Positions 13,652-53,512 of a stretch of 64,000 bases of DNA are shown here, piece after piece (position 1 is the stretch's first letter; each line of letters begins with the position of its first letter). The notes below the pieces were generated by a model that was not told where the DNA came from, did not search any database, and saw nothing but the letters and a program-made list of their open reading frames with translations. Location of the stretch: the NCBI GenBank assembly GCA_023935145.1, contig CM043705.1:16892501-16956500 (forward strand). The letters run 5' to 3'. The DNA is from Bretschneidera sinensis. Taxonomy: Eukaryota > Streptophyta > Magnoliopsida > Brassicales > Akaniaceae. Position numbers and translations under genes: made by a program.

Positions 13652-14947
13652 TGTTGTGCAAGAATCTACCTAAATTAATAAGCAAATAATTGAACGGTTT
13701 TACTTGCAAGTGCACAAGGTCAACATAGTAGTATAGTGTGCAAAACGAGATCATCTCCACAGGGATTGGTAAATTTTGATTTAGAATTAAATTCGCAATA
13801 TAAAACGAGAGAATAAATATTGAGTTTGAATCGATAATGATAAAAGTGTAAGGACTTGATATCCACCACTAATCATGCTACCACAACAAAACAATATGCC
13901 AATGCTTTAATCACGTTATGAATACCTAATGTTTGTTAACCTAAGGGCATGATGTATACTCCTTAAGCTATTGATTTCCCTAAGCAACAAATTAGGTATG
14001 GTGTATACTCTAACTCTTTTCTTTCTTAAAGGATTTAGCATGGTGTATACTAAGTTGTTCTCTAAGAAAGCATAATATCTGTGGAAATCGACAAACACAC
14101 GAGACCTAGGGCATGGTGTATACTCCCGATTTCCCATGTTGATTAACCTAAGAACCCGACATGGATTTCTTTTGTTACTATTGTTAAACCCAAGACTCGG
14201 TTATCCAAATTGATTTAACTAACTAGTCCATACCACATGCATATGTTGATTAGGCAAACATATATGAGGAATTTCAAGAAAACAAGCATTAATCAAGTTA
14301 AGCATCAAAATATAACTATCACAAAGGCGCCAATACTAAATTATTGAGTAAACATAATCAGGGCTTCAATCAAGCCCTTACTAGCAAATTAGTTACACGT
14401 GGTTTTGATGCTAAACATCTTCATAAAATAAAATAAAGAAAAAGAATAAAACCGAAAATACTATGGAGAAGAGTCGTCAGTTCGTCTCCAAAATCTCCTT
14501 TCGAATTCTACCATTTCTGTGTTTACAAGCCTATTTATAAGGTTTAGGGACATCTGGAAACCCTAAACTCATAAAACAAAACCCTACTCCTACTTTCCAA
14601 AATAGGTTCTGCCATTTTGATGTTTCACTGATGCTCGTGTGCGCTCGATCACAGACTGGTGCGCTCGAGCCTTCTTCTTGTGCCCACGAGCGTAGGTGCG
14701 CTCGATCCTGGCTTGGGTGCTTGAGCATTGTTATGCTCGATCGCAGGTCTCCTGCACTCGATCGCACTAGGCAGACTCCAAATTTTACTCTTTAAGTCCG
14801 ACAGTTCCAAAATGCTTCATTTTTTCCAAAAACCTATAAAAACACAGAAAACACAGAAAGAAAATAAAATAGCATGAAATAACACAAACTAAGAGATTAA
14901 CAAATGTAAATTAAGGGGTTTAAATATGAATATTTAAGCACTTATCA
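13652..14947 (-). repeat. 3' LTR of G
   Basis: A 1296-bp LTR followed by a minus-strand polypurine tract (GGGGGTG at 14948-14954). It carries about 60 bp, near 14717-14776, that the 5' LTR lacks; this stretch includes two copies of the CTCGATCG motif. Confidence 0.92.
14530..14776 (-). promoter_or_regulatory. G LTR promoter: motif cluster and TATA box
   Basis: On the minus strand, about five related words (TGCGATCGAG, GATCGAGCGCAC and similar) fall between 14776 and 14636. About 100 bp further on comes CCTTATAAATAGG (14530-14542), a good plant TATA box. The core CTCGATCGAG-like word is close to palindromic. The same words occur upstream of G's third ORF (48490-49107) and near the 5' leader (52079-52112). 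Promoter function is inferred from position. Confidence 0.6.
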
Positions 14948-14954
14948 CACCCCC

Positions 14955-15489
14955 AAACTTACATATTGCTAGTCCCTTAGCAATACGAAACTAAAAACTA
15001 AATGAAAAACAAATAACACGAAGATAAATCCATCATTCATGGTGTCCAAAAATTTAAGTCGCACACAAAACCATGATATCTATTTATGAGCAAGCTTAAA
15101 ATACACACTCATCTTCGCAATGAATAGGAGTTTTAAAATCTAATTACTTACAAGAGGCTGGCTAAGGTATCACAAGTCCGACTCAATGTAAAGTGAACTA
15201 GCACATAAAAATGAAGCTTTCAAATAACTCCAATGTGTAATGTCTCCATGTATCAAGATTCACCGAATTTCTCATCAAAATGATAAAAACTGGCATAGTT
15301 TTATTTCCTTCTTTCTTTATTATGAGACTTTGTCATGTTTAGTTCTCTTAAGTTTTTTAATTGACCTATGTAGCGAGTGTTGAGTCAATGACTCTCAAAC
15401 CAGATGGTTTTAGGGCATTAGGTGTAAAGACACCCCTAAGGACTTACTAACTCGAGTAAAAAATGCTATGAAACTAAACTGGCCTTAAT
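14955..15489 (-). other. G 3' noncoding region, left part
   Basis: No coding capacity. It continues at 46463 after E2 is removed. It was cut by E2 at the target ACTAC (15490-15494), which is GCTAC on the other side. Confidence 0.7.
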
Positions 15490-15494
15490 ACTAC

Positions 15495-16479
15495 TGTAGC
15501 TCGAGGTTTCAACCCAAGAGGGGGGGTGAATTGGGTTTTTAAAAACTTTTGCGGAATTTATACAAGTTTATAAAAACTGATAAGCAACAAATAATTAATA
15601 CAAGTAATAAGCTGTAAATAAAGAGTTTAAGGAAAGAGGATGCAAACACAGTTATAGTGGTTCGGCAATATCAGATTCGTTCCGACCCTACCTCCACTCT
15701 TTTCAAGGAACTCCTTGAAGTAATCCACTAAGAAAACTTAGTCGCACAACTTAGCCGGGTGTTGTACAAACCGTACACAAGCAATTTACAGGAATTGCTT
15801 AAACCGAAAAATTCCCATCATTTCGGAAGTTTCCCCGTCCTCTCGGAAGTAATCCCTTTACAAAGATGGTGTAAAGTAAAAGGTAGAGAGACAGCAAATG
15901 AAAGCTTTTTACAACAGAAATGTCTCTCTTTCAAAGTAAAGCTTGAAGAAATGGCTCAACAAGATTATTTCAAAGCTTTTTATGTTTCAAGAGTATAAAA
16001 ACTTGATTATATGAGATCAACTCTTTTTGAATATGTGCTGCTTGTTTTTGAATGCTTTGCTGAATGGGTTTATATAGCAATCAATTAATATGGCCGTTTT
16101 GGACTTTAATTTGAAAAAGATTTACTTTAAAACGTTCTGATTTAGAGTCCAACGGTCATATTTTTGAATTACCAGTCGATTGGGTCGAGATACCAGTCGA
16201 CTGGGTTCACTCGAAAAATACTCATTTTCAGACATTCTGGGTATCCAGTCGACTGGTATATATCATCCAATCGACTGGGGACTTTCTGTCCATTTTACCA
16301 GTCGACTGGGTTGATTCATCCAGTCGACTGGAAACTTACTGGTCAAAGTACCAGTCGACTGGGTTGTTTTATCCAGTCGACTGGGTACCTTCTGACCTAT
16401 ATACCAGTCGACTGGTATATGTACCCAGTCGACTGGGTTGTTTTCCAACCCAGTTTTTCTTCTGTTTTTGATTAAAAAC
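15495..16479 (-). repeat. E2 3' LTR, first part
   Basis: 985 bp of the LTR, beginning TGTAGCTCGAGG on the plus strand. It includes the palindrome array at 16172-16436. It stops at the E1 insertion site AAAAC and resumes at 26789; together the parts make 1249 bp, the same length as the intact E2 5' LTR. Confidence 0.93.
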
Positions 16480-17729
16480 TGTAGCTCGAGGTTTCAACCC
16501 AAGAGGGGGGTGAATTGGGTTTTTAAAAACTTTTGCGGAATTTATACAAGTTTATAAAAACTGATAAGCAACAAATAATTAATACAAGTAAAAGGCTGTA
16601 AATAAAGAGTTTAAGGAAAGAGGATGCAAACACAGTTATAGTGGTTTGGCAATATCGGATTCGTTCCGACCCTGCGTCCACTCTCTTCAAGGAACTCCTT
16701 GAAGTAATCCACTAAGAAAACTTAGTCGCACAACTTAGCCGGGTGTTGCACAAACCGTACACAAGCAATTTACAGGAATTGCTTAAACCGAAAAATCCCC
16801 TTCCTTTCGGAAGTTTCCCCTTCCTCTCGGAAGTAATCCCTTTACAAAGATGGTGTAAAGTAAAAGGTAGAGAGACAACAAATGAAAGCTTATTACAACA
16901 GAAATGTCTCTCTTTCAAATTAAAGCTTGAAGAAATGGCTCAATAAGATTATTTCAAAGCTTTTTGTGTTTCAAGAGTATAAAAACTTGATTATATGAGA
17001 TCAACTCTTTTGGAATATGTGCTTCATGTTTTTGAAAGCTTTGCTGAATGGGTTTATATAGCAATCAATTAATATGGCCATTTTGGACTTTAATTTGAAA
17101 AAGATTTACTTTAAAACGTTCAGATTTGGAGTCCAACGGTCATATTTTTGAATTACCAGTCGACTGGGTCGAGATACCAGTCGACTGGGTTCACTTGAAA
17201 AATACTCGTTTTCAGACCTTCTGGGTATCCAGTCGACTGATATATATCACCCAGTCGACTGGGGACTTTCTGTCCATTTTACCAGTCGACTGGGTTGATT
17301 CATCCAGTCGACTGGGAAATTACTGGTCAAAGTACCAGTCGACTGGGTTAATTCATCCAGTCGACTGGGTACCTTCTGACCCATATACCAGTCGACTGGT
17401 ATATGTACCCAGTCGACTGGGTTATCTTCCAACCCAGTTTTTTTTTTCTGTTTTTCATCAAAAACATTTAAAAATAATGGTTTTAGAAAAACCTTTTGTG
17501 TTTGAGCCATTGAACAAGCTAATACAATGTATGAGTGAGACTTACATTGGTTCTAAACCTTAAGACCTATTCTAGATCTTCAGTCTTCACTTGATACTTG
17601 ATTTGGTTCGAGTTTTTGCACTTTGTTCCTTGGTTGAATGTGTTTGATCCTTAATACAACTTAGTTTAAACATGTTAGTTAAATAACAGTTGTGTTTTGC
17701 CATCATTAAAATACGGGCGAGGGTCAACA
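16480..17729 (-). repeat. E1 3' LTR
   Basis: A 1250-bp LTR with TG...CA ends. The palindrome array is at 17156-17420, and the minus-strand TATA box (TATATAAA) is at 17053-17060. The polypurine tract AAAAAGGGGGAGAT follows on the minus strand. Confidence 0.94.
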
Positions 17730-18040
17730 ATCTCCCCCTTTTTGATGATGACAAAACTAATAATGTAAAAACAATTTTAAAAACTAAGTGTTAAGATTTT
17801 ACAAAAATTCGGACAGAGTCTCCTCTGTTTTTCGAGTAAAACCACCTTGTAAACAAGCAAACACAGTTTATATTTCTTTCAACCAATCCAGAATTAAACT
17901 CAACCAATCAAAAAACAGTTTTACAAAGATATGGAGCAATGCTCCCCCTAAATCTATGCATTGGTTGCGTTTTACTTAGATTTTCTCGTTTTTCTCATTT
18001 TTCTCCCCCGTTTTGACAACAGCAACCAAAGGGGGCAGAA
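17730..18040 (-). other. E1 polypurine tract region
   Basis: The tract next to the LTR (17730-17743 region, AAAAAGGGGGAGAT on the minus strand) is followed by two more purine tracts, at about 17940-17948 and 18003-18009. Multiple polypurine tracts are a reported trait of Sireviruses. E2 repeats the pattern at 27053, 27264 and 27325, and E3 at 34256, 34468 and 34531. Confidence 0.7.
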
Positions 18041-18400
18041 CATAAAAAATAAGCTACTTAGCCAATACAATCAAATAGATTATAAGAATACAAAGAAGTA
18101 CACGAAGATTTGGCTTCATTCGAATTTCAGAAGCCTTCCCGAGAAGAACCGGAAGTTTTTCAAGCATATAAGTATTTTATAGCAGTTTTAGTGACCAAAC
18201 AGATATTTAAAACAGTTCTAACATATCACAAATAGCGTAAATAAATGCAATAAATATGGCTAATAGTATTACATCATCATAGAGAAAAATTCAATACAAG
18301 CAGGGCCTCATAGAGCCATAACTAAGAAAAACAAACATGAGATGTCCGTGCTATGTGACAAAAACTGGAAAAGCGCTAAGAACTGATAAAAGAAAGAGAC

Positions 18401-19657
18401 TCATGGTGCGGGAGAGTCCGAGCTGTCACGAAGAAGTTCCCTAATCTCAGCTAGGGAACCCTCGGTATGCTCTCTATGTAACTCAAAATCGTCCCGTAGG
18501 TGGTCTATGGAGGAGCTCAGCCTCTGGTAATCGGACTGCATGGACTGAAAACCGGACTCCATCGTCATCTGAAGACTCGTGATAGCTCGTAGGATGTTAC
18601 CATAACCAGTCTGACCAGTACTCGAGTCATCAATGGGAGGTGCTCGGATATCCGTCTCCATCTCAGCAGCCGTATCAGCATCCTCATCACTGTCACTCGC
18701 ATCCTCTCGGATCCTTAGGCGCTTTCCGGCCTTTGGATAGAGAAACCCTTCACGAACAGTACATCCCATCTTCTTCAGAGATGAGATGTTGACGATATCC
18801 GTCAATCCGATATCCTGAGCCTCGGAGGCAGGCAAAGGTACCCGGAAGTGCTGGAGGATGAATGTAATGAGCATCCCATAAGGAAGACACCCGGAGTCGT
18901 TTGCTTCGCCGTTTATCATGTTGGCGAGCAGCAGAGGATATATATTGAAGTGGTGCCCAGATTTTAGGCACCAAATCAATACCGTATCTATTTTAGATAG
19001 ATACCCTCGACTCCCGAGTCTCGGGTGGATGGTCCAACTGACAATCAATTGAAACATCTTTGAGTCGAGGGGCAAGTCACTACATGTGTGAAATGTAGTG
19101 GGTCTGTACACATAGTTAGGGTCGCCCCTGACTATCCGACAGGCCTCCTCAACTTCAAAGTTGTCTGGCCATCCATCCAGACTCCATTGAACCCCCCTTA
19201 TAGGGATTCTCAGAATGCTCATCAAGAGGTCAGTGTTGACCTCAAACTCCACAACACTAACTCTGGTTCTGAATCTCAGAGCCAGAGGACTGGGTTTCAC
19301 CAAGTTCGCATAGAACTGGTGAATCAGTCGCGGGTAATATTTTTCATGAATTCTGACCAGTGGGGTCAGATTTATTGCCTCAAAGGCTGGTAGAATATCG
19401 AAATTACCATGACGAATGGAGTCGAAATCAACGACTCTACCCGTCATGATTTTCTTGTGACGGATTATAGAGTTATACCTCTTATGAGCCGCTGGGATGT
19501 AAAATAGAGTCTGCTCCAACTCTGTTCTGGGCTCCTTGCTGGATGACCCTGCTGTTCCCTTCCCTTTTGACTCCGAGGCCGAAGGTTTTGAAGACCTTGG
19601 CTTTTTGGGCGCATTAGGTCCACTAGTTGTGAGTTTTAAACGGATTTTGTCACTCAT
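18401..19657 (-). CDS. E1 ORF3, putative element-encoded nuclear protein
   Basis: A 418-residue protein with no signal peptide or membrane segment. Residues 1-45 are basic and Ser/Pro/Lys-rich. Residues about 50-305 form one globular domain with PRLIHQFYANL at 109-119 and LPYGMLI near 258, resembling the plant retroelement family known as the putative plant transposon protein domain. Residues 309-318 (KAGKRLRIRE) look like a nuclear localisation signal. Residues 319-346 are acidic, and 355-410 probably form a coiled coil. The ORF lies downstream of pol in the same strand, where SIRE1 and Athila carry their so-called env-like ORF. It has its own TATA box and an ATG-free leader. No catalytic motif is visible, and its function is unknown; a DNA-binding or anti-silencing role is my inference. 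Confidence 0.8.
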   Translation of the reverse strand: MSDKIRLKLTTSGPNAPKKPRSSKPSASESKGKGTAGSSSKEPRTELEQTLFYIPAAHKRYNSIIRHKKIMTGRVVDFDSIRHGNFDILPAFEAINLTPLVRIHEKYYPRLIHQFYANLVKPSPLALRFRTRVSVVEFEVNTDLLMSILRIPIRGVQWSLDGWPDNFEVEEACRIVRGDPNYVYRPTTFHTCSDLPLDSKMFQLIVSWTIHPRLGSRGYLSKIDTVLIWCLKSGHHFNIYPLLLANMINGEANDSGCLPYGMLITFILQHFRVPLPASEAQDIGLTDIVNISSLKKMGCTVREGFLYPKAGKRLRIREDASDSDEDADTAAEMETDIRAPPIDDSSTGQTGYGNILRAITSLQMTMESGFQSMQSDYQRLSSSIDHLRDDFELHREHTEGSLAEIRELLRDSSDSPAP

Positions 19658-19865
19658 TTTGGAGAAATTTGAAGTTTCTGGAGAGAGAAAATTTGGTAAA
19701 AATGAGAGATTTTAATCGTAAAAAGTTAAAAATCTCTTTAGGAATGAGTAGATCGGTGTGTTTAGAAGGGATTTGGATGGTTTTTAGATCAAAAAGATGA
19801 ATTTTTCTAGAGAGAGAAAGCTTGGGCTCTTTGAAAATGGCGTAAAAATGGCGAAAATGAACAGT

Positions 19866-19875
19866 CCCTTTTATA
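19866..19875 (-). promoter_or_regulatory. E1 internal TATA box before ORF3
   Basis: The minus strand reads TATAAAAGGG, a strong plant TATA box, 209 bp before the ORF3 ATG. The intervening leader has a CT-rich patch and no upstream ATG. The palindrome array lies immediately upstream. It is conserved at the same distance in E2 (29050-29059) and E3 (36386-36395). Confidence 0.6.
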
Positions 19876-19886
19876 GAATCGCGATA

Positions 19887-20159
19887 CCAGTTGACTGGGT
19901 AAACGTACCAGTCGACTGGGTGATCTGGCAGAGAGTTACCAGTCGACTAGACTATTTTTACCAGTAGACTGGAGGACAATGGTTTTTCAAAAAGATGGCT
20001 CCAAACAGGATTTAATCTTATAGACGACTGGAGAAGACTTACCAGTCGTCTGGTTAAATTGGCAGAAAGTTACCAGTCGACTGGGTCAAAATTATCAGTC
20101 GACTGGAATATCTGGCAGAGACTTACCAGTCGACTGGATCACATGTACCAGTCGACTGG
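19887..20159 (-). repeat. E1 internal palindrome array
   Basis: About ten copies of CCAGTCGACTGG or one-base variants, including CCAGTTGACTGG and CCAGTAGACTGG. In the middle lies a 10-bp inverted pair AGACGACTGG...CCAGTCGTCT (20022-20051). The array is between the pol stop and the ORF3 TATA box. It has lost about 60 bp at its ORF3 end compared with E2 and E3. Confidence 0.93.
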
Positions 20160-20299
20160 ACCCTTAGCAAAATTTTCAGTCTGGTATTTTAAGCACGAAT
20201 TTGTTTATCTATGACATTTTTGAGTGAGGGAAATAATTAAACAATGATTAATACTCTTTCACTCAATGTCAAATATGCAACTGATGAAATGAGATGCAA

Positions 20300-27631: not shown

Positions 27632-28840
27632 TCAGAGCCATCCCTCGGTGTGCTCTCGATGTAACTCGAAGTCGTCCCGTAGGTGGTCTATGGAGGAGCT
27701 CAGTCTCTGGTAATCAGACTGCATGGACTGAAAACCGGACTCCATCGTCATCTGGAGACTCGTGATAGCTCGTAGGATGTCACCGTAATCAGTCTGACCA
27801 GTACTCAAGTTACCAATGGGAGGTGCTAGGGTATCCGTCTCCATCTCAGCAGCCGTATCAGCATCCTCATCATTGTCGCTCACATCCTTTTGGATCCTTA
27901 GGCGCTTTCCGGCCTTCGGATAGAGGAATCCGTCACGAACAGTACATCCCATCTTCTTCAGAGATGAGATGTTGATGATGTCTGTCAATCCGATATCCTG
28001 AGCCTCGGAGGCAGGCAAAGGTACCCGGAAGTGCTGGAGGATGAGTGTAATGAGCATCCCATAAGGAAGACACCCGGAGTCATTTGCTTCACCGTTTATC
28101 ATGTTGGCAAGCAGCAGAGGATATATATTGAAGTGGTGCCCAGATTTTAGGCACCAAATCAATACCGTATCTATTTTAGATAGATACCCTCGACTCCCGA
28201 GTCTCGGGTGGATGGTCCAACTGACAATCAACTGAAATATCTTTGAGTCGAGGGGCAAGTCACTACATGTGTGAAATATAGTGGGTCTGTACACATAGTT
28301 AGGGTCGCCCCTGACTATCCGACAGGCCTCTTCAACTTCAAAGTTGTCTGGCCATCCATCCAGACTCCATTGAACCCCCCTTATAGGGATTCTCAGAATG
28401 CTCATCAAGAGGTCAGTGTTGACTTCAAACTCCACCCCGCTAACTCTGGTTCTGAATCTCAGAGCCAGAGGACTGGGTTTCACCAAGTTCGCATAGAACT
28501 GGTGAATCAGTCGCGGGTAATATTTTTCATGAATTCTGACCAATGGGGTCAGATTTATTGCCTCAAAGGCTGGTAGAATATCGAAATTACCATGGCGAAT
28601 AGAGTCGAAATCAACGACTCTACCCGTCATGATTTTCTTGTGACGGATTATAGAATTATACCTCTTGTGAGCCGCTGGGCTGTAAAACAGAGTCTGTTCC
28701 AACTCTGTTCTGGGCTCCTTGCTGGATGACCCTGCTGCTCCCTTCCCTTTCGACTCCGAAACCGAAGGTTTTGAAGTCCTTGGATTTTTAGACGCATTAG
28801 GTCCACTTGTTGTGAGTTTAATACGGATTTTGTCACTCAT
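27632..28840 (-). CDS. E2 ORF3, C-terminus altered
   Basis: 402 residues, the same protein as E1 ORF3, with an intact globular domain, acidic patch and most of the coiled coil. A deletion of about 140 bp relative to E1 removes the natural C-terminus and stop. The last residues are now EGWL, and about 16 residues are lost. The frame is otherwise open although both gag and pol of E2 contain stops. Confidence 0.8.
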   Translation of the reverse strand: MSDKIRIKLTTSGPNASKNPRTSKPSVSESKGKGAAGSSSKEPRTELEQTLFYSPAAHKRYNSIIRHKKIMTGRVVDFDSIRHGNFDILPAFEAINLTPLVRIHEKYYPRLIHQFYANLVKPSPLALRFRTRVSGVEFEVNTDLLMSILRIPIRGVQWSLDGWPDNFEVEEACRIVRGDPNYVYRPTIFHTCSDLPLDSKIFQLIVSWTIHPRLGSRGYLSKIDTVLIWCLKSGHHFNIYPLLLANMINGEANDSGCLPYGMLITLILQHFRVPLPASEAQDIGLTDIINISSLKKMGCTVRDGFLYPKAGKRLRIQKDVSDNDEDADTAAEMETDTLAPPIGNLSTGQTDYGDILRAITSLQMTMESGFQSMQSDYQRLSSSIDHLRDDFELHREHTEGWL

Positions 28841-29070: not shown

Positions 29071-29408
29071 CCAGTCGACTGGGGTCGATATACCAGTCGA
29101 CTGGGTCCCTTTGAAAAGATGAACAGTTTCTTTACCAGTCAACTGGGTAAACGTACCAGTCGACTGGGTAAACTGACAGTGAGTTACTAGTCGACTGGGC
29201 TATCTTTACCAGTCGACTAGGAGGACAAGGGGTATTCAAAAAATTGGCTCCAAATAGGATTTGATCTTATAGACGACTGGAGAAGACTTACCAGTCGTCT
29301 GGAAGTTTTGACAGAGAGTTACCAGTCGACTGGGTCAAAATTACCAGTCGACTGGAAGATCAGGCAGAGACTTACCAGTCGACTGGAGCACATTTACCAC
29401 TCGACTGG
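29071..29408 (-). repeat. E2 internal palindrome array
   Basis: About twelve CCAGTCGACTGG sites or single-base variants, with the perfect 10-bp inverted pair AGACGACTGG / CCAGTCGTCT at 29271-29300 and a 10-base loop. Confidence 0.93.
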
Positions 29409-34919: not shown

Positions 34920-36176
34920 TCATGGTGCGGGAGAGTCCGAGCTGTCACGAAGAAGTTCCCTAATCTCAGCTAGGGAACCCTCGGTGTGCTCTCGATGTAA
35001 CTCGAAGTCATCCCGTAGGTGGTCTATGGAGGAGCTCAGCCTCTGATAATCGGACTGCATGGACTGAAAACCGGACTCCATCGTCATCTGAAGACTCGTG
35101 ATAGCTCGTAGGATGTCACCATATCCAGTCTGACCAGTACTCGAGTCACCAATGGGAGGTGCTCGGGTATCTGTCTCCATCTCAGCAGCCGTATCAGCAT
35201 CCTCATCACTGTCACTCGCATCCTCTCGAATCCTTAGGCGCTTTCCGGCCTTAGGATAGAGAAACCCTTCACGAACAGTACATCCCATCTTCTTCAGAGA
35301 TGAGATGTTGATGATATCCGTCAATCCGATATCCTGAGCCTCGGAGGCAGGCAAAGGTACCCGGAAGTGCTGGAGGATGAGTGTAATGAGCATCCCATAA
35401 GGAAGACACCCGGAGTCGTTTGCTTCGCCATTTATCATGTTGGCGAGCAGCAGAGGATATATATTGAAGTGGTGCCCAGATTTTAGGCACCAAATCAATA
35501 CCGTATCTATTTTAGATAGATACCCTCGACTCCCGAGTCTCGGGTGGATGGTCCAACTGACAATCAATTGAAACATTTTTGAGTCGAGGGGCAAGTCACT
35601 ACATGTGTGAAATGTAGTGGGTCTATACACATAGTTAGGGTCGCCCCTGACTATCCGACAGGCCTCCTCAACTTCAAAGTTGTCTGGCCATCCATCCAGA
35701 CTCCATTGAACCCCCCTTATGGGGATTCTCAGAATGCTCATCAAGAGGTCAGTGTTGACCTCAAACTCCACACCGCTAACTCTGGTTCTGAATCTCAGAG
35801 CCAGAGGACTGGGTTTCACCAAGTTCGCATAGAACTGGTGAATCAGTCGCGGGTAATATTTTTCATGAATACTGACCAGTGGGGTCAGATTTATTGCCTC
35901 AAAGGCTGGTAGAATATCGAAATTACCATGACGAATGGAGTCGAAATCAACGACTCTACCCGTCATGATTTTCTTGTGACGGATTATAGAGTTATACCTC
36001 TTATGAGCAGCTGGGCTGAAAAACAGAGCCTGCTCCAACTCTGTTCTGGGCTCCTTGCTGGATGACCCTGCTACTCCCTTCCCTTTTGATTCCGAAGCCG
36101 AAGGTTTTGAAGACCTAGGCTTTTTGGGCGCATTAGGTCCACTTGTTGTGAGTTTTATACGGATTTTGTCACTCAT
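34920..36176 (-). CDS. E3 ORF3, putative element-encoded nuclear protein
   Basis: 418 residues, nearly identical to E1 ORF3, with the same start, domain and C-terminus (DSSDSPAP). There are no stops, frameshifts or membrane segments. The two full-length copies differ at few positions, for example V versus G in the TRVSxVEF segment near residue 135. The reading frame survives in a copy whose pol has two nonsense codons. Function unknown; see E1 ORF3. Confidence 0.82.
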   Translation of the reverse strand: MSDKIRIKLTTSGPNAPKKPRSSKPSASESKGKGVAGSSSKEPRTELEQALFFSPAAHKRYNSIIRHKKIMTGRVVDFDSIRHGNFDILPAFEAINLTPLVSIHEKYYPRLIHQFYANLVKPSPLALRFRTRVSGVEFEVNTDLLMSILRIPIRGVQWSLDGWPDNFEVEEACRIVRGDPNYVYRPTTFHTCSDLPLDSKMFQLIVSWTIHPRLGSRGYLSKIDTVLIWCLKSGHHFNIYPLLLANMINGEANDSGCLPYGMLITLILQHFRVPLPASEAQDIGLTDIINISSLKKMGCTVREGFLYPKAGKRLRIREDASDSDEDADTAAEMETDTRAPPIGDSSTGQTGYGDILRAITSLQMTMESGFQSMQSDYQRLSSSIDHLRDDFELHREHTEGSLAEIRELLRDSSDSPAP

Positions 36177-36406: not shown

Positions 36407-36744
36407 CCAGTCCACTGGGGTATATATACCAGTCGACTGGGTCCCTTTGAAAAGAAGAATAGTTTCTTTTCCAGTCGACTGGGTAAACGTACCAGTCGAC
36501 TGGGTAAACTGGCAGTGAGTTACCAGTCGACTTGGCTATTTTTACCAGTCGACTGGAGGACACGGATTTTTCAAAAAAAATGGCTCCAAGCAGGATTTGA
36601 TCTTATAGACGACTGGAGAAGACTTAACAGTCGTCTGGAAGTTTTGACAGAGAGTTACCAGTCGACTGGGTCAAAATTACCAGTCGACTGGAAACACAAG
36701 CAGAGACTTACCAGTCGACTGGAGAACATTTACCAGTCGACTGG
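36407..36744 (-). repeat. E3 internal palindrome array
   Basis: About twelve CCAGTCGACTGG-type sites; the first is CCAGTCCACTGG. The inverted pair AGACGACTGG / ACAGTCGTCT (36607-36636) has one mismatch, unlike E1 and E2. Confidence 0.93.
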
Positions 36745-42115: not shown

Positions 42116-42117
42116 AT

Positions 42118-43423
42118 TGTAGCTCGAGGTTTCAACCCAAGAGGGGGGTGAATTGGGTTTTTACAAACTTTTGCGGAATTAATACAAGTTTATAAAAACT
42201 AACTAGCAGCAAACAATTAAAGCAAGTAATGTGCTGAATAATAAAGAGTTTAAGGAAAGAGGATGCAAACACAGTTTATAGTGGTTCGGCAATATCGGAT
42301 TCGTTCCGACCCTACGTCCACTCTCTTCAAGGAACTCCTTGAAGTAATCCACTAAGAAAACTTAGCCGTACAACTTAGCCGGGTGTTGCACAAACCGTAC
42401 ACAAGCAGACTTACGGGTGTTTGCCCAAACCGTCCAAACAACTTACAGGTGTTGCTTAAACCAACAATCCCCTTCCTCTCGGAAGTTTCCCCTTCCTTTC
42501 GGAAGTAAACCCTTTACAATGAAGATGTAAAGTAACAGGTAGAGAGATAGCAAATAACAGCTTATTACAATAGAAATATCTCTCTTTCAAAGTAAAGCTT
42601 GAAGAAATGGCTCAATAGGATTATTTCAAAGCTTTTTGTGTTTCAAGAGTATAAAAACTTGATTATATGAGATCAACTCTTTTTGAATATTTGCTTCTTC
42701 TTATTGAATGCTTTGCTGAGTGGGTTTATATAGCAAACAATTAATATGGCCGTTTTGGACTTTAATTTGAAAAAGATTTACTTTAAAACGTTCAGATTTG
42801 GAGTCCAACGGTCATATTTTTGAACCACCAGTCGACTGGGTCGAGATACCAGTCGACTGGGTTCACTTGAAAAATACATGTTTTCAGACCTTCTGGGTAT
42901 CCAGTCGACTGGTATATATCATCCAGTCGACTGGGGACTTTCTGTCCATTTTACCAGTCGACTGGTATATATCATCCAGTCGACTGGATACTTACTGGTC
43001 AAAGTACCAGTCGACTGGGTTGTTTGATCCAGTCGACTGGGTTGTTTGATCCAGTCGACTGGGTTCCTTCTGACCTTTATACCAGTCGACTGGTATATGT
43101 ACCCAGTCGACTGGGTTGTCTTCCAACCCAGTTTTTCTTCTGTTTTTCATTTAAAAACATTTTAAAATTAATGGTTTTAGAAAAACCATTTGTGTTTGAG
43201 CCATTGAACAAGCTAATACAATGTATGAGTGAGACTTACATTGGTTCTAAACCTTAAGACCTATACTAGATCTTCAGTCTTCACTTGATACTTGATTTGG
43301 TTCGAGTTTTTGCACTTTGTTCCTTGGTTGAATGTGTTTGATCCTTAATACAACTTAGTTTAAACATGTTAGTTAAATAACAGTTGTGTTTTGCCATCAT
43401 TAAAATACGGGCGAGGGTCAACA
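42118..43423 (-). repeat. E3 5' LTR with promoter
   Basis: A 1306-bp LTR. The palindrome array is at 42828-43114 with 11 sites, one more than the 3' LTR because a GTTGTTTGATCC-plus-palindrome unit is duplicated near 43020-43050. The TATA box is TATATAAA at 42725-42732 on the minus strand. Confidence 0.93.
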
Positions 43424-43428
43424 CTAGG

Positions 43429-45153: not shown

Positions 45154-45194
45154 TGGATCAACTCTAGGATTTTAAGCCTAATAAAGAGAACGAG

Positions 45195-45206
45195 GCTCTG
45201 ATACCA
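45195..45206 (-). other. E2 primer-binding site
   Basis: TGGTATCAGAGC on the minus strand, two bases from the 5' LTR. Confidence 0.95.
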
Positions 45207-45208
45207 AT

Positions 45209-46457
45209 TGTAGCTCGAGGTTTCAACCCAAGAGGGGGGGTGAATTGGGTTTTTAAAAACTTTTGCGGAATTTATACAAGTTTATAAAAACTGATAAGCA
45301 ACAAATAATTAATACAAGTAATAAGCTGTAAATAAAGAGTTTAAGGAAAGAGGATGCGAACACAGTTATAGTGGTTCGGCAATATCGGATTCGTTCCGAC
45401 CCTACGTCCACTCTCTTCAAGGAACTCCTTGAAGTAATCCACTAAGAAAACTTAGTCGCACAACTTAGCCGGGTGTTGTACAAACCGTACACAAGCAATT
45501 TACAGGAATTGCTTAAACCGAAAAATCCCCTTCCTTTCGAAAGTTTCCCCTTCCTCTCGGAAGTAATCCCTTTACAAAGATGGTGTAAAGTAAAAGGTAG
45601 AGAGACAGCAAATGAAAGCTTTTTACAACAGAAATGTCTCTCTTTCAAAGTAAAGCTTGAAGAAATGGCTCAACAAGATTATTTCAAAGCTTTTTGTGTT
45701 TCAAGAGTATAAAAACTTGATTATATGAGATCAACTCTTTTTGAATATGTGCTGCTTGTTTTTGAATGCTTTACTGAATGGGTTTATATAGCAATCAATT
45801 AATATGGCCGTTTTGGACTTTAATTTGAAAAAGATTTACTTTAAAACGTTCTGATTTGGAGTCCAACGGTCATATTTTTGAATTACCAGTCGACTGGGTC
45901 GAGATACCAGTCGACTGGGTTCACTTGAAAAATACTCGTTTTTAGACCTTCTGGGTATCCAGTCGACTGGTATATATCATCCAGTCGACTGGGGACTTTC
46001 TGTCCATTTTACCAGTTGACTGGGTTGATTCATCCAGTCGACTGGAAACTTACTGGTCAAAGTACCAGTCGACTGGGTTGTTTCATCCAGTCGACTGGGT
46101 ACCTTCTGACCTATATACCAGTCGACTGGTATATGTACCCAGCCGACTGGGTTGTTTTCCAACCCAGTTTTTCTTTTGTTTTTCATTAAAAACATTTAAA
46201 AATAATGGTTTTAGAAAAACCTTTTGTGTTTGAGCCATTGAACAAGCTAATACAATGTATGAGTGAGACTTACATTGGTTCTAAACCTTAAGACCTATAC
46301 TAGATCTTCAGTCTTCACTTGATACTTAATTTGGTTTGAGTTTTTGCACTTTGTTCCTTGGTTGAATGTGTTTGATCCTTAATACAACTTAGTTTAAACA
46401 TGTTAGTTAAATAACAGTTGTGTTTTGCCATCATTAAAATACGGGCAAGGGTCAACA
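45209..46457 (-). repeat. E2 5' LTR with promoter
   Basis: A 1249-bp LTR. The palindrome array is at 45886-46150 (10 sites; two have single changes, CCAGTTGACTGG and CCAGCCGACTGG). The TATA box is at 45783-45790 on the minus strand. The LTR end is followed by GCTAC, the E2 target duplication. Confidence 0.94.
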
Positions 46458-46464
46458 GCTACTA

Positions 46465-46648
46465 AGCAAAATTCTCACCTTTTGACGTGAACACTCACTG
46501 CTTACTGAGGCAAGAGGTCCAGTTACTCAATGAAAAGTTTATTAATGATCATCATGAGCAAAATTCCCACCTTTTGACGTGAACACTCATTGCTTACTAA
46601 GGCAAGAGGTCCAGTTACTAAGTGAAAAGTTTATTAATGATCATCATG
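46465..46648. repeat. 92-bp tandem duplication in G
   Basis: Two adjacent copies of a 92-bp unit (starts 46465 and 46557), differing at a few bases, in the noncoding 3' part of G next to the E2 insertion. Bases 46649-47420 hold no gene. Confidence 0.85.
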
Positions 46649-47429
46649 AGCATTTTTCTATTTTTGTGCAGAATTTTGTTTCTACTTTTCTATGCCATAG
46701 TGTTCATCCAACAAGTCATTCAGTTTCAGTTAAGCCATGGAAACATACACATTAAAATCATATGTCATACTTCACACAATTATGTGCTAATGTGCTCGTG
46801 TCAGATTAGATCAAACATGTGAATTCTTAAATGCCTAAAGTAAGTAACTAACTTTAAAAATTCTATTATCAGATCATGTGTTCAAGATTTTAAGTTTACT
46901 AATGAAATCATATCACAGTTTTTGTTTAGAACAACCAAAATTCAAAACAACATGACATGCGTTTATCTTCTCTTTTAAACAATAATAAATAAATAAATAA
47001 AACTGGGACAAAGTGTGTGTGAATGTGTCTCCCATTCCCCTAAATTTAATTTACACATTGTCTCCAATGTGTGAAAATTATGGAAAGATCTGACCTGGGA
47101 GATGAAGAACTAACTTGACTAGCATGGCTCATAGTATACCTCCAAACTTGAATTGATGCACACATTGTCCCTGAAAAAGAAATACTAAAGTAATACTGGA
47201 AAACAAAAAATAAATACCAAAAATAAATAGTAATAAAACAATAAAAACAAAAGGATATGCTGTGGGGTGCCTCCCATGAGTGCTAAGTTTTACGTCTTCA
47301 GCCAGACGGTGCACCTTTCTCTCACAGCTGGCTTCCATTTAGTGCTGAAGATGAGGCTCCAGAGGCGGGAGGAAATCGGTCTAGAATGGCTTGGAGTATT
47401 GCTTCTTGCCTTTTAAAGCGTGCTTCTAA

Positions 47430-48385
47430 ACCGTCTATGTGCTAATGAACTAGGCATGTAACCTCCCGATCCTCCCATCGAATATCAGCTAACTCATACC
47501 GGAAGGAGGACATCTCCTCAAGGATGTGCTGGTACTCTGTGGATCCCATATTAGCATGGTCCTCCTCCCAAGTCTGGCTAGCTGCTGGGTCTTCAGTCTC
47601 TATAGGGTCATCCTCTACCCTCTTAGCAGTAGGTGCAGGTCCTTGAAGTCCTCTCGACATGTGTGATTGACTTTGGGTCCACTGATTCTTGCCAAATAAT
47701 GGGTGCTCCCTAACCGGTCTATCTATGGAGGAGTACTTAATTCTCTTCTTCTTGAAAATGTAAGTGAGGAGGAATGGGAACAGGAGCCCCCATCCAGTAG
47801 CAGTGGTGACCTGACGTGCATGGATGTGGTCCTAAAACTTATGAATCTGGCTCTAGATGATCGCAGGTATGAAGTACCGGTGGCTTCTGTGAAAGACATA
47901 CAGTGATTGGAGAAATTAGTTACGCCTTTGAGTCTTATGTCCCAATAAGCACACATTGCGCTGTAGAATAGAATCACAAGTAAGAGTTATAGAGGCAACT
48001 TGGATCGACTGCCAGCATTGTTGTACCTATCTGCATACCGCACGGCACACATGTCTTCAATGATGGCAAAAATTGAAAAGGACTCCGGCTACTCGTCCAA
48101 CTAGGTGCCCTCAAGTGGATTTTCGTCATTGCATTTGGGGGCAATGGCTATATCTGATGATGTCAAGTCAATGTACTTGCCCTGAACAGATGAGGACAAG
48201 ACACTTGGTCTGCTGCAGTCGAAGAAAAGGTTCTCATAGAACTGAACAATGAATCTGGTGTAAGTAGTAGAGCTGACTAGCTTAAACAACCTTTTCAAAC
48301 CACGGCGTTTGAACTCTTGAACAACCCATTGAGTGGCTTCAAAGCTTTTGAAATCATCGTCTATGTTAAATGTGGTTTCGAACAA
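47430..48385 (-). pseudogene. G third ORF, decayed homologue of ORF3 family
   Basis: The clear N-terminal part (48101-48385) contains TRFIVQFYENL, which lines up with PRLIHQFYANL of the Sirevirus ORF3. After stops and frame changes, a segment near 47770 reads GLLFPFLLTYIFKKK, matching the LPYGMLITFILQHF region of ORF3. A C-terminal piece (47442-47660) resembles the acidic, helical tail. The relation to the putative plant transposon protein family is by eye and distant. It occupies the position of the Athila env-like ORF, but nothing resembling a signal peptide or membrane anchor is seen. Confidence 0.6.
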
Positions 48386-48489
48386 GATCTCTCGTTGTTA
48401 AAAAATAGGTCAGGAAGACTGTGCTTGGCTTCCCAAAGCGCAGGATGTGGAGACAGTGTGTTTAGGAATTCTGGACACAATCTACAACA

Positions 48490-49107
48490 GTGGTGCGTTC
48501 GATCACAGCAAAGTGTGATTAATCGCACTGGGCAAGTTGCGCTTGATCACAACTTTTTTTGTGCTCAATCGTGCCTTTTGGCAGGTCACTAAGGTCTTTT
48601 GTCGAACAGATGAGGGGGCGATGCCGAACCCAAGCAATGGGCGATAATCTTCGAAAGTGCCTAACCTCCTACAAATTCAAGCAAAATCAACCACAAAGAC
48701 AAAAAAGCATGTTGTATATGTAATTATTAGTAAAAAGGAATAATAAAAAACATGGGGATATGGGGAAAGGGTTAGTGACTGTGTGTGGTTGTGAAGGGTA
48801 AAACAGGGATACGAAATTACTTGGTGGTAGTGAGTGGTGGCGACGTGTGGTGGTGAGTGGTGGGAGCCTTGCTGTGAGAGATTGGGTGTGGGCAAGTGCC
48901 GTGGTGTGGTGAGCGCAAGAGAGTGCAAAGAGTGTAGCGAGTGAGGGTGTAAGTGAAGGAAAAATGAAATGACCTAAAATAGGCACGTGACTCTATGTCC
49001 TGAGTACGCTCGATCACACTGGTGCGCAGGCTATGCGTGTGGATGTGCTCGCTCACCATTAGACGCATGGCGAGATTGCACTCAAACGTACTATGAAGTG
49101 CGCTCGA
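48490..49107 (-). promoter_or_regulatory. G internal motif clusters and possible promoter before third ORF
   Basis: Two clusters of the LTR word lie upstream of the third ORF. One is at 48490-48590 (CGTTCGATCACA, GCGCTTGATCAC). The other is at 49003-49107 (CGCTCGATCACA, GCGCTCGATCGCA). Just downstream of the second, on the minus strand, is CCTATTTTAGG (48973-48983), a weak TATA-like sequence, then a CT-rich leader. A GTAATTT donor near 48820 and TTTGTAG acceptor near 48680 could bound a leader intron. All functional meaning is inferred. Confidence 0.4.
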
Positions 49108-49259
49108 TCGCAAGGATAGAATGCCACACCTATGTACTGACTCACTAAATTAACTGAAGAAAAGACAAAAAAAAGTTAAAAATAATGAAAAACAATAAAC
49201 AAAAATAAATCAAAGTGTACTATACGTAGTGGCCTCGGTACCACTGACCTCAATAGAGG

Positions 49260-50494
49260 CGCTTGAGCTTCATGTTTATCAAAGCCTGGACTGCTCAAAC
49301 CCTCTTTATAGTAGCTGCAATGCTACTCTTTAAAAGGGAGCTCTTAAAGTCCACCACATGTGGCTCAAGTGCTCTTAGTGCGGCTACATACTGGACAGAC
49401 TTGAGTGCCAAATCTTCATCTCTTGGTAGCAAATTGATTTCAAAGTATGGGTTTACTCTTTGTCCATTCACTGTAAATGTTCAATTGCTATCAGAACCAT
49501 GAACCTCCTTTTTAACCAGCTGTTTCTCATGATAGGCTTTGGTTCTTTCCTTGGTGTTCTCACATGCATCATGTCTTAATTCTCCCAGCTCATTCAAATG
49601 CAACTTTCTCTTATCACCCGATCTTGCATGCATTGGAGAGGCATCAGGGAGGTGCATAGCTTTAATGATGTCATCAGTAACATCCTTAGATTTAGGCTCT
49701 ACTTTCGCTCTTGGGAAACTATGGGTGAGGGTGGTCTCTAACAGATTAATGTGCTTGACCTGAAAAGCTTGCTCAATAATACCTCGCATCATACATATAT
49801 TAAAACATTCCATACCATCTTGGGGTAATTTTAATGCATCAAATATTTTGAATTCTATTTTCTCACCATTTACCTTCATACGTACTATACCCTTTTTCAC
49901 ACAAATTTTTGTATCAGTAGTTCTCATAAAGGGTCTTCCTAAGATGATGGGCAGAGATAATGGCATAAGACATTCTTCCATATCTAATACAATAAAATCA
50001 CCAAGTAAAATAAATTCACCTACCTTCACCAAGACATCATCAAGAATACCTCTTAGTTGTTTGATGCTCCTGTCTGCTAATTGCAAGGTGATGGAAGTTG
50101 GTTGAAGCTCCTCCAAACCGAGTGTCTCGAATACAATGTATGGCAGCAAATTGACACCAGCCCCTAGATCCAGTAGTGCACACTCAAAAAGTTGGTCACT
50201 TATCCTGCAAGGAATGGTAAAACTACCTGGATCTTTTAGCTTTGGTGGGAGTTTCCTTAACAATACCGCACTCACCTCTTCAGTTAAAGCCACTGTTTCA
50301 TGCTCTTGAAACTTCCTTTTATGAGTGCAATAATCTTTCCAAAATTTAGCATATGCAGGAATTTTTTGAATCGCATCTAATAAAGGAATATTAATCACTA
50401 CTTTTCTCAAAGTTTCAAAGATATCAAGCAATTTACTTTCTTTCTTTGGTTTTACTAACCTTTGAGGGAAGGGTGGGGCATTTACCTTCTCCAT
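49260..50494 (-). pseudogene. G protease joined to integrase tail
   Basis: An aspartic protease fold with LLDLGAGVNLLP (the usual D-S/T-G is D-L-G here, a changed active site) and ILGRPFM near its end. About 100 residues later the frame becomes LHLNELGELRHDACENTKER and then, after a stop at 49481-49483, TFTVNGQRVNPYFE. Both are typical of the C-terminal tail of Athila/Tat integrase. RT, RNase H and the integrase core are absent between them. This indicates an internal deletion that kept the pol tail in frame. Confidence 0.8.
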
Positions 50495-51913
50495 TTCACT
50501 TACCTTTGATGTGGATACTTTATCTGAAGATTCTTGTGCAGGCTCATCAACTTCTATGATCTTACCATTTCCAAGAGTTGTAACGGCCTTCAGTTACTGA
50601 TGTCCTCCTGGATTAGGTAGTGTTTGGGTTGGAAGCTCACCTTGCTTTCTTCCACTTAGCTCCTTAGCTAATTGCCCCACTTGTAGTTCCAGTCTTTGAA
50701 TAGCTTGTTCATGTTTTGCATTTGTTTGTCTTTGCTTAGTCCAAAATTTTCTTTCTTTTGCCATAAACTGGTCTTGTGAAGTCATCAGCTATTGTTGTTG
50801 AGTTACCAATTGCCTCACAATACTCTCTAGGTCACTCTTCTTTGATTCTGAAGTTGATTGGGCTACTGGTTGGGAATTCCTTTGCTGCCCTTGAAGGTTT
50901 AGGGCATTCTGATTGTTATTCCATGAGAAGTTGGGGTGATTTCGCCATCCAGGATTATAGGTATTTGCATATGGATTATTCTTGGGAGGATAGTTGTTCG
51001 GTCCCACATAGTTTGCTTGCTCTGGATCTGCAGATGAATACAAAGGGCAAGTTTCAGTAGTGTGATCAAAATGAGATCATATAGCACATACTTGGAATTG
51101 TGTAGCTTGTGGACTAGGTGAGATGTTCTGAGCATCCATGGCTTTTACAAGCATATCTAGCTTTCTTTCCACAGTAGCCATCTGGTTTGAAGATCCACCA
51201 TTTAAAGTCACCTCATACTTACCTTTTCTCTTAACTCCTTGTTTACCTCTAGATGAGAATTGTTGGGTGTGCTCTCTTAATGTCTCAAACAGCTCCATGG
51301 CTTCTTCACTTCTCTTTTCCATCAGCACACCTCCACAACTTGAATCCACAATACCTTTATTTATGTAACTCAAACCTTCGTAGAAAGCTTGTACCAGCTC
51401 ATCTTGAGGTAGATTGTGATGTGGGCATTTGAGTAGCAGCTCATTAAAGTGTCCCCATGCTTCAAAGAAAAGATCTCCATCCTTCTGTTGGAAAGATTGA
51501 ATCTTCTTCCTCATCTATCTTGTCTTTTATGCTGGGAAAAATTTCTTTAAAAACCTACTGGATAGCTCTTCCCAAGTATGGATGGACACTGCAGGCAATG
51601 AATTGAACCACAACTTAGCATTATCTTTTAATGAAAAAGGGAAAAGAATTAACCTAATTCCCTCTTGATCTAAGCCCCGGATGTGCAAGAACTTGCAGAG
51701 ATCAAAGAATTCCCTAAGGTTCAAGTGTGGATCCTCAGCAAGTGTACCCCTAAAATGAGTCAAAACACTAAGTACCTACGGAGCTATGTAATAATTGCCT
51801 TCTGTCTCAGGTTGATAAGCAATGCATGAGGGCTGGTTAAGGTTTTGTGGGATGAAGGATTGCTTTATGGGTCTTCGCTCTAGTGGTGGTTGGTTGTCAA
51901 GCTGTTCCGCCAT
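50495..51913 (-). pseudogene. G gag with nonsense codons
   Basis: Starts at MAEQLDNQPP (51911-51913). The retrotransposon Gag core spans 51527-51763 (FFDLCKFLHIRGL, then LFPFSLKDNAKLWFNSLP) and continues to 51077. A degenerate zinc knuckle is near 51070, followed by an Asn/Gln/Pro-rich segment and a coiled coil. All segments share one frame, the same as the protease. Only nonsense codons break it (for example at 51527, 51077, 50789 and 50594), with no frameshift. Confidence 0.88.
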
Positions 51914-52252
51914 TGGTGCTTCTCCCTCGAACTAGGCCTCTGTCGAATGGTCTACTCAATCTCTGTATCGAGTGGAAAGATGGTTGGATTCCTAGATCGA
52001 AGCCCTTGCATGAATCAGCTGAAACTCTTCAGTGCAGCAGCTTCAGTACTGCTGTTTGGGTAGTTTTTGGCCTTTTGCCCTCAATCGCACCAAGTACCGC
52101 GCTCGATCGCAATACCAGAAATTACTTTGCTGCAAACCTGAAACAAAAAAATAGAAAAAATAAATAAATTAGATATTTGATGAAACAAAAATAAAACATA
52201 ACAGAAAAATAAAACTGAACGAAAAATAATTCTAAACTGAAATTTTACGCAG

Positions 52253-52270
52253 TCCCCGACAACGGTGCCA
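52253..52270 (-). other. G primer-binding site
   Basis: TGGCACCGTTGTCGGGGA on the minus strand, six bases from the LTR. It differs by two bases from TGGCGCCGTTGCCGGGGA, the typical Athila-type site matching tRNA-Asp. Confidence 0.85.
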
Positions 52271-52276
52271 AAAACT

Positions 52277-53512
52277 TGTTATGCAAGAATCTACCTAAAT
52301 TAATAATCAGATAATTGAACGGTTTTTCTTGCAAGTGCATAAGGTCAACATATTAGTATAGTATGTAAATGCGAGATCATCTCCACAGGGATTGGTAAAT
52401 TTTGATTTAGAATTAAATTCACAATATAAAACGAGAGAAATAAATATTGAGTTTGAATCGATAATGATAAAAGCGTAGGGACTTGATATGCACCACTAAT
52501 CATGCTACCACAACAAAACAATATACTAATGCTTTAATCACGTCATGAATACCTAATGTTTGTCAACCTAAGGGTATGTTGTATACTCCTTAAGCTATTG
52601 ATTTCCCTAAGCAACGAATTAGGCGTGGTGTATACTTTAATTCTTTTCTTTCTTAAAGGATTTAGCATGGTGTATACTAAGTTGTTCTCTAAGAAAGCAT
52701 AATATCTGTGGAAATCAACAAACACACGAGACCTAGGGCATGGTGTATTCTCCCGATTTCCCATGTTGATTAACCCAAGAACCCGGCGTGGATTTCTTTT
52801 GTTACTATTGTTAAACCCAGGACTCGGTCATCCAAATTGATTTAACTAACTAGTTCATACCACATGCATATGTTGATCAGGCAAACACATATGAGGAATT
52901 TCAAGAAAACAGGCATTAATCAAGTTAAGCATTACAATATAACTATCGCAAAGGCGCCAATACTTATTGAGTAAACATAATCAGTGCTTCAATCAAGCCC
53001 TTACTAGCAAATTAGTTACACATGGTTTTGATGCTAAACATCTTCATAAAATAAAATAAAGAGAAAAAAATAAACCCGAAAATACTATGGAGAAGAGTCA
53101 TCAGTTCGTCTCCAAAATCTACTTTCGAATCCTCCCATTTCTATGTTTACAAGCCTATTTATAAGGTTTAGGGACATCAGGAAACCCTAAACTCGTAAAA
53201 CAAAACCCTACCCATACTTTCCAAAATAAGTTATGTCGTTTTAATGTTTCACTGATGATTGTGTGCACTCGATCACAGACTGGTGTGCTCGAGCCTTCTT
53301 CTTGTGCACGCGAGTGTAGGTACACTCGATCCTGGCTTACACTAAGCAGACTCCAGCTTTTACTCTTTAAGTCCGATAGTTCTAAAATGCTTCATTTTCT
53401 CCAAAAACACAGAAAACACAGAAAGAAAATAAAATAGCATGAAATGACACAAACTAAGAGCTTAACAAATGTAAATTAAGGGGCTTAAATATAAATATTT
53501 AAGCACTTATCA
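52277..53512 (-). repeat. 5' LTR of G
   Basis: A 1236-bp LTR. Its TATA box is CTTATAAATAGG on the minus strand (53154-53165). The CTCGATC cluster lies upstream at about 53265-53335 but has lost about 60 bp compared with the 3' LTR. Confidence 0.92.

What the first reader, a model, noticed from the sequence alone, without database searches (positions are those of the whole stretch)
13652..53512. An unrelated gypsy element shows the same design with its own DNA word
Seen: G carries TGCGCTCGATCGCA-like words upstream of the LTR TATA box (14636-14776 before 14530-14542). They recur upstream of its third ORF (48490-48590 and 49003-49107, before a TATA-like CCTATTTTAGG), with two more near 52079-52112. 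Its third ORF resembles ORF3 of the copia copies (TRFIVQFYENL versus PRLIHQFYANL). Known: VANC proteins of VANDAL transposons bind short motifs repeated in their own element and remove silencing. Inference: copia and gypsy elements share a protein family, each member paired with a private target word, as an anti-silencing or copy-control system.
Basis: partly seen in the sequence, partly recalled or inferred. Interest (0 to 1): 0.87.

Follow-up and report, generated by a model that had tools for sequence, protein, structure and literature searches.

The report
Private promoter words in nested retrotransposons
A decayed gypsy-type retrotransposon carries its own 14-letter DNA word in its main promoter, its leader and around the start of a broken third gene, as the unrelated copia elements nested inside it do with a different word, and these words are likely landing sites for a dedicated regulator, possibly the third gene's own protein, which is untested.

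Summary
The words are real. All 11 sites within 3 mismatches of TGCGCTCGATCGCA lie in the gypsy element G, none in the other 55,102 bases; they sit in U3, leader and pre-ORF3 spacer, none in gag-protease, all in one orientation. Pieces of the word also top an unbiased k-mer count. G has no recognisable reverse transcriptase or integrase, and its ORF3 is broken. Its likeness to the copia ORF3 (Pfam PF20167) is suggestive but far below cut-off. One of the two pre-ORF3 clusters lies after, not before, the weak TATA-like box. The copia half is in print: the nested copies carry Sirevirus hallmarks, and element-specific palindromes in Sirevirus LTRs and before the envelope-like gene were described in 2010. 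What I did not find in print: the same layout in a gypsy element, and, in the copia copies, word spacings close to multiples of 10.5 bp, so that the words face one side of the helix. Copia words also vary less than their spacers. Best mechanism: word arrays are protein platforms that jointly drive the genomic and ORF3 promoters; that ORF3's product binds them is possible, not shown. No second copy of G could be examined: the own-genome search did not complete.

The parts
13652..14947 (-). 3' LTR of G (TG...CA)
   Evidence: LTR pair 93.3% identical in its main 1,067-column block; boundaries from TSD and end motifs
52277..53512 (-). 5' LTR of G
13647..13651 (.). target-site duplication CATGT, left; right copy at 53513-53517
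14640..14766 (-). U3 word cluster of G in the 3' LTR: sites at 14640, 14660, 14681, 14697, 14732, 14753 (1, 4, 4, 3, 2, 1 mismatches)
53264..53334 (-). U3 word cluster in the 5' LTR: one site at 2 mismatches, three eroded to 5 mismatches, two absent
14530..14542 (-). TATA box CCTTATAAATAGG in U3, about 100 bp downstream of the nearest word; second copy 53154-53166
52254..52270 (-). primer-binding site TGGCACCGTTGTCGGGG, seven bases inside the 5' LTR (tRNA type recalled as Asp, not tested)
52076..52111 (-). two words in the leader, 22 bp apart
50597..51931 (-). gag remnant (PF03732 in two pieces, E 2.7e-8 and 7.6e-7)
49484..50593 (-). protease-like region (PF13650 E 0.0058, below cut-off); no reverse transcriptase or integrase family in any of 25 sense pieces
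49005..49112 (-). word cluster upstream of ORF3: sites at 49005, 49044, 49077, 49099 (2, 4, 4, 0 mismatches)
48973..48983 (-). weak TATA-like box CCTATTTTAGG, 24 bp after the nearest upstream word
48494..48573 (-). second word cluster, downstream of the TATA-like box: sites at 48494, 48514, 48538, 48560 (2, 4, 2, 4 mismatches)
47445..48397 (-). broken ORF3 of G; piece 48104-48397 weakly like the start of PF20167
15495..46457 (-). nest of copia elements with Sirevirus hallmarks inside G; all 95 sites of its word CCAGTCGACTGG (2 mismatches or fewer) lie here
17156..17420 (-). one of six U3 arrays of the copia word (10 words); the others start at 16172, 26212, 33682, 42828, 45886
36407..36744 (-). 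one of three pre-ORF3 arrays of the copia word (11 words), 12 bp upstream of TATAAAAG; the others are 19887-20159 and 29071-29408
34920..36176 (-). open copia ORF3, 418 aa, PF20167 E 3.6e-15; other open copies 18401-19657 and 27632-28840

Best explanation
G is a pol-less gypsy-type retrotransposon in which one near-palindromic, CpG-rich 14-bp word is repeated in the U3 promoter, the leader and around the start of a broken ORF3, and these repeats are likely binding sites for one sequence-specific protein that would switch the genomic promoter and a predicted internal ORF3 promoter together. The copia elements nested in it show the same layout with another word. There the words stand at close to whole helical turns from each other and are conserved while the DNA between them is not, which would fit a protein that binds cooperatively along one face of the helix. 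The most likely binder is the element's own ORF3 product or that of a full-length relative, acting as a VANC-like self-recognition factor that would keep or make its own promoters active and leave other families untouched. Shown: the words, their places, their privacy within this window, and in copia the spacing, conservation and open ORF3. Inferred: protein binding, promoter activity, the identity of the binder, anti-silencing.
For: 11 of 11 G-word sites (3 mismatches or fewer) in G, 0 in 55,102 other bases; pieces of the word top the unbiased 8-mer and 10-mer lists of G, while the flanks outside G and the nest show mainly AT, AG and A repeats at the top of their lists. Sites sit in U3, leader and pre-ORF3 spacer, 0 in 2,634 bp of gag-protease. 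Copia: 95 sites, none outside the nest; 61 in six U3 arrays, 31 in three pre-ORF3 arrays, 3 single weak ones inside ORF3; each of the three pre-ORF3 arrays ends 12 bp before TATAAAAG, and U3 arrays about 96 bp before TATATAAA. Spacings 21/22, 31, 42, 52, 81/82: vector strength 0.90-0.975 at best periods of 10.40-10.60 bp for the five arrays given; six distinct spacing lengths alone, random reach 0.00046. Spacers of equal length are 33% identical between U3 and pre-ORF3 (random 27%), words 94%. Variable columns, words against spacers: 5 of 120 against 24 of 155 in six U3 arrays (p 0.0026), 9 of 108 against 43 of 175 in three pre-ORF3 arrays (p 0.0005). ORF3 dN/dS 0.15-0.21 in 3 pairs, pol 0.15-0.38 in 4 comparisons. 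In print: envelope-like ORF promoter in Athila6A (PMC4977677, passages); PF20167 and a predicted nuclear signal in a sunflower Athila ORF (PMC11728184, passages).
Against: Only one copy of G; its ORF3 is dead, so this copy cannot make the protein. PF20167 in G is below cut-off, the 214-residue read-through with X at stops gave no PF20167 hit at E 10 or less, and ANAPC4 scored better than PF20167 wherever PF20167 appeared. No DNA-binding evidence for PF20167; the structure model is useless (pLDDT 36). The G TATA-like box is weak and one cluster lies after it. Helical phasing in G is marginal (p 0.03). 4 of 13 word-bearing Sireviruses lack the envelope-like gene (PMC2829016, Table 3), most maize Sireviruses lack it (PMC3414828, passage), and SIRE ORF3-position proteins fall into 19 groups with little or no mutual similarity (PMC6317226, passage). 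Both word arrays fold strongly as RNA, which favours a rival.
Confidence: 0.42

Rival explanations
1. The words are sites for host transcription factors, recruited separately by each family; ORF3 has some other job (envelope-like, movement, chaperone).
For: Arrays stand upstream of TATA boxes in U3. Bousios et al. found mainly stress-type sites when they matched Sirevirus words to plant cis-element lists, and word-bearing Sireviruses without the envelope-like gene exist (PMC2829016, sections 9 and 15 part 1 read). Helical phasing fits any cooperative factor.
Against: The two families share neither word in this window, so one host factor would not explain both; the 2010 paper could not name a common binding site for a single factor.
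Confidence: 0.32
2. The words work as RNA: palindromes in the transcript pair into hairpins that serve packaging or feed small-RNA production by the host.
For: Copia U3 array z -15.2 against 200 shuffles; G arrays z -2.9, -2.3, -3.2. Palindromic clusters of maize Sirevirus LTRs collect an excess of small RNAs (Bousios et al. 2016, seen only as described in PMC10760457 passages).
Against: Any array of palindromes folds, so the z-scores do not separate the readings. RNA pairing gives no reason for spacing near 10.5-bp multiples or for placing arrays just upstream of TATA boxes.
Confidence: 0.13
3. The words are a neutral by-product of local tandem duplication in fast-evolving non-coding DNA.
For: Copia arrays contain repeats of a 53-bp two-word unit (spacings 22 + 31) and same-length spacers within one array are 55-57% identical, so duplication did build them; one orientation throughout in G fits duplication too; one LTR has an extra word with 22 bp.
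Against: Words vary less than spacers between copies; U3 and pre-ORF3 arrays share words and spacing but hardly any spacer sequence; words keep to promoter-like places.
Confidence: 0.1

Closest known systems
Sirevirus repeated motifs (RM boxes), Bousios et al. 2010, PMC2829016 (abstract, passages, sections 9, 15 part 1 and 4 part 1 read)
   Same: Element-specific CpG palindromes clustered in the LTR upstream of the TATA box and upstream of the envelope-like gene (9 of 9 RM elements with that gene); some have extra copies at the start of the gene, as in G. The window's copia copies fit directly.
   Different: RMs were reported in 13 of 21 Sireviruses and compared only with other copia elements; G is a gypsy element. 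The copia word CCAGTCGACTGG lacks the CGG-CCG signature of 12 of the 13. Helical spacing does not appear in the parts I read.
VANC anti-silencing system of VANDAL DNA transposons, Hosaka et al. 2017, PMC5735166 (abstract, sections 8 and 9 read)
   Same: Element-private short motif, dense, in one orientation, in non-coding DNA, next to an element gene; motif gain and loss by tandem repeats.
   Different: VANDALs are DNA transposons; VANC proteins carry DUF1985/DUF287, not PF20167; binding and demethylation are shown there and untested here.
Athila elements with an envelope-like ORF and its promoter: Athila6A (PMC4977677, passages) and sunflower Athila 14 (PMC11728184, passages)
   Same: Gypsy element, third ORF after pol with its own promoter (Athila6A) or with PF20167 (Athila 14). 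G's PBS and protease style recall Athila.
   Different: No repeated word is mentioned in the passages I saw; G has lost pol and an open ORF3.

Membership tests
Sirevirus (copia copies) | PPT AGGGGGAG followed by AT/TG at the 3' LTR | tested here: met
   AGGGGGAGATTG at 17732, 27055 and 34258, with further AGGGGGAG copies at 17942, 27265, 34468 (motif)
Sirevirus (copia copies) | tRNA-Met-type PBS and polyC-rich signal near the LTR end | tested here: met
   TGGTATCAGAGC at three LTR junctions; CACCCCCCTCTTGGG near the LTR end. The exact published signal sequence was not seen
Sirevirus (copia copies) | reverse-transcriptase phylogeny | not tested
   no reference sequences held; RVT_2 found
Sirevirus RM architecture (G) | private palindromic CpG word clustered in U3 before TATA | tested here: met
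   G's word is near-palindromic (one mismatched pair of seven)
Sirevirus RM architecture (G) | word cluster upstream of the third ORF | tested here: met
   49005-49112 and 48494-48573; the ORF itself is broken
Sirevirus RM architecture (G) | carried by a copia Sirevirus | tested here: not met
   G has gypsy-type gag PF03732 and a different PBS
Athila lineage (G) | RT/RH/IN phylogeny | not testable with these tools
   no RT or IN family in 25 of 25 sense pieces of 45 aa or more from 46460-52276
Athila lineage (G) | PF20167 / Athila ORF-1 type third ORF | tested here: inconclusive
   PF20167 E 0.097 and 0.16, no hit with the longest read-through; PF03078 not hit
VANC-type anti-silencing | element protein binds the element's word and removes methylation | not testable with these tools
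   needs binding and methylation assays
VANC-type anti-silencing | VANC domains DUF1985/DUF287 | tested here: not met
   copia ORF3 hits PF20167 alone at E 1 or less

The most novel reading that the evidence does not exclude
PF20167-type third ORFs are a family of self-recognition DNA-binding proteins shared by copia and gypsy retrotransposons; each protein is tuned to its family's private palindrome, laid out on one face of the helix in both U3 and the ORF's own promoter, so that an element activates and unsilences itself and no other.
Probability: 0.27. Interest if true: 0.88.

Novelty: new variant of a known kind. Interest (0 to 1): 0.56.

Why it matters
The job of the 'envelope-like' third genes of plant retrotransposons has been open for decades. 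If the layout (private word in U3 and before ORF3) holds in gypsy as well as copia elements, it argues that these genes are part of a self-regulation circuit and not an envelope, and it gives a direct test: does each ORF3 protein bind its own family's word? The helical register in the copia arrays makes a sharp prediction: half-turn shifts should break the array.

Tried and rejected
Relatives outside the window: protein search with copia ORF3 found none at E 0.001 or less among 5,046 candidates; viral contigs with copia ORF3, G protease, copia pol and a two-word pattern: none; genome contigs with G protease and a 25-bp U3/TATA pattern: none; plasmids with copia ORF3: none. These collections seem to hold no plant DNA of use, so the 'each lineage has its own word' test could not be run. 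Structure of copia ORF3: mean pLDDT 36.3, pTM 0.20, not used for fold search. A profile of the three copia ORF3 copies ranks the G piece second of 525, E 0.49: no proof of homology. Rejected: reading CCTATTTTAGG as a good TATA box; reading both pre-ORF3 clusters as upstream of it; claiming that CpG positions in words are specially protected (1 of 20 against 7 of 27 variable, p 0.11). CpG observed/expected is higher in the word-bearing parts of G (0.71-0.94) than in gag-protease (0.17), but masking words lowers it to 0.54-0.70, and the LTR pair shows 18 changes at 70 CpG positions against 58 at 1,163 others, so G has been methylated: no sign here of lasting protection.
Full report
What is there. 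G is a Ty3/gypsy-type element on the minus strand, 13652-53512, with LTRs 13652-14947 and 52277-53512 and the duplication CATGT on both sides. The LTRs are 93.3% identical over the main block. The internal part holds gag (PF03732) and a protease-like stretch (PF13650, below cut-off); none of the 25 sense pieces of 45 aa or more between 46460 and 52276 matches a reverse-transcriptase, RNase H or integrase family at E 1 or less (the 547 bp left of the nest and the other strand were not scanned by Pfam). G is interrupted by a nest of copia elements, 15495-46457.

The words. Eleven distinct sites lie within 3 mismatches of TGCGCTCGATCGCA, all in G, all in the same orientation; the 55,102 other bases have none, and 6 at 4 mismatches against 6 in G's 8,898 bases. 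At 4 mismatches or fewer, G's 17 sites fall as 6 in the 3' LTR, 1 in the 5' LTR, 2 in the leader, 8 in the pre-ORF3 spacer and 0 elsewhere; at 5 mismatches sites scatter over both strands. The word was chosen from this sequence, so the shuffles are after the fact; the k-mer count, which knew no word, gives GCGCTCGA (8-mers) and GATCGAGCGC (10-mers) as the most surprising words of G. At 10 letters the flanks outside G and the nest give mainly AT and A runs; their 8-mer lists also hold AG runs and a few weaker words such as CCTACAGC.

On the sense strand the cluster 49005-49112 precedes CCTATTTTAGG, but 48494-48573 follows it; the box is a poor TATA. ORF3 is broken. The piece 48104-48397 matches PF20167 at E 0.097 in the first 54 of 177 profile positions, with ANAPC4 scoring better at 0.025; with X at stops one reading gave E 0.16 and a longer one no PF20167 hit. 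If only PF20167 and the 25 pieces are counted, 0.097 corresponds to about 1e-4 (my arithmetic), which with the published PF20167 ORF of a sunflower Athila makes homology likely, not shown.

The copia side. The nested copies carry the Sirevirus PPT AGGGGGAGATTG and PBS TGGTATCAGAGC and an open ORF3 of PF20167 (E 4.6e-13 and 3.6e-15 for the two copies scanned). All 95 sites of CCAGTCGACTGG (2 mismatches or fewer) are in the nest: 61 in six U3 arrays, 31 in three pre-ORF3 arrays, 3 single ones in ORF3. Bousios et al. 2010 described this layout for Sireviruses (PMC2829016; abstract, passages, sections 9, 15 part 1, 4 part 1 read). In their Table 3 all nine word-bearing elements with the envelope-like gene have words before it and the four without have words in the LTR alone; two of those four (maize OPIE-2, PREM-2) have a word close to that of HOPIE, and rice Osr8 one close to that of Osr10, both of which have the gene. 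My inference: they could use a relative's protein. Tnd-1 has no such partner in the table.

Spacing and conservation. Copia word spacings are 21/22, 31, 42, 52 and 81/82 bp. In the five arrays given to (of nine; four more U3 arrays have the same spacing list as the first) vector strength peaks at 0.975, 0.958, 0.903, 0.930 and 0.930 at periods of 10.56, 10.60, 10.40, 10.46 and 10.46 bp; random spacings reached this 0, 0, 6, 0 and 1 times in 20,000 (the random runs used a coarser period grid, and array spacings are not independent because a 53-bp unit has been duplicated). Taking only the six distinct lengths (81 left out as a variant of 82), random sets reach the observed coherence in 0.00046 of trials; 82 is the worst fit, 2 bp off. 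Between one U3 array and one pre-ORF3 array, equal-length spacers are 102 of 309 identical (0.33, random 0.27) and words 260 of 276 (0.94; words were picked by likeness). Across copies words vary less than spacers, and U3 words less than the TATA-to-U5 part (5 of 120 against 56 of 485, p 0.017), while U3 spacers do not differ from it (p 0.21). ORF3 is under purifying selection like pol.

G's spacing. Seven of 11 spacings are 20-24 bp (random 3.5e-5); phase at 10.5 bp is marginal (p 0.03). I left the weak site 14681 out of that count; with it the U3 spacings would be 20, 21, 16, 35, 21. The nearest word stands about 100 bp from the U3 TATA in both elements (101 and 96), and 24 and 12 bp from the box before ORF3: a likeness from two cases.

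How it likely works. Arrays of a private word at two promoters, in register, suggest one dedicated protein that switches both. Athila6A has an envelope-ORF promoter whose presence steers silencing (PMC4977677, passages), so an internal promoter in G is plausible. I rank the element's own ORF3 product (VANC-like) slightly above a host factor: the words are private to each family, yet ORF3-less Sireviruses with words exist. RNA folding remains open.

Novelty. The copia part is known. For gypsy elements, my ten paper searches, read mostly as listings, showed no report of such words at U3 and a third ORF; subscription papers are mostly not held. Helical spacing was not in the passages I read and was not searched for by name.

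Noticed in passing
13948-14126 and 52666-52757: A second repeated word, GCATGGTGTATACT-like, stands downstream of the TATA box in both LTRs of G (three exact-pattern hits in one LTR, two in the other).
   Followed up: partly
46471-46660: Direct duplication of about 90 bp in the 3' non-coding part of G, next to the copia insertion point.
   Followed up: no
14715-14766 against 53336-53342: The two LTRs of G differ by a 49-bp stretch holding two words: word number has changed since insertion.
   Followed up: partly
42828-43114: One copia U3 array has an 11th word, added with a spacing of 22 bp.
   Followed up: no
12075-12540 and 59060-59550: An 81% identical direct repeat flanks G, perhaps the LTRs of an older element that received G; copia-type pol pieces (Pol_BBD, gag_pre-integrs) also lie at 3355-4044.
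   Followed up: no
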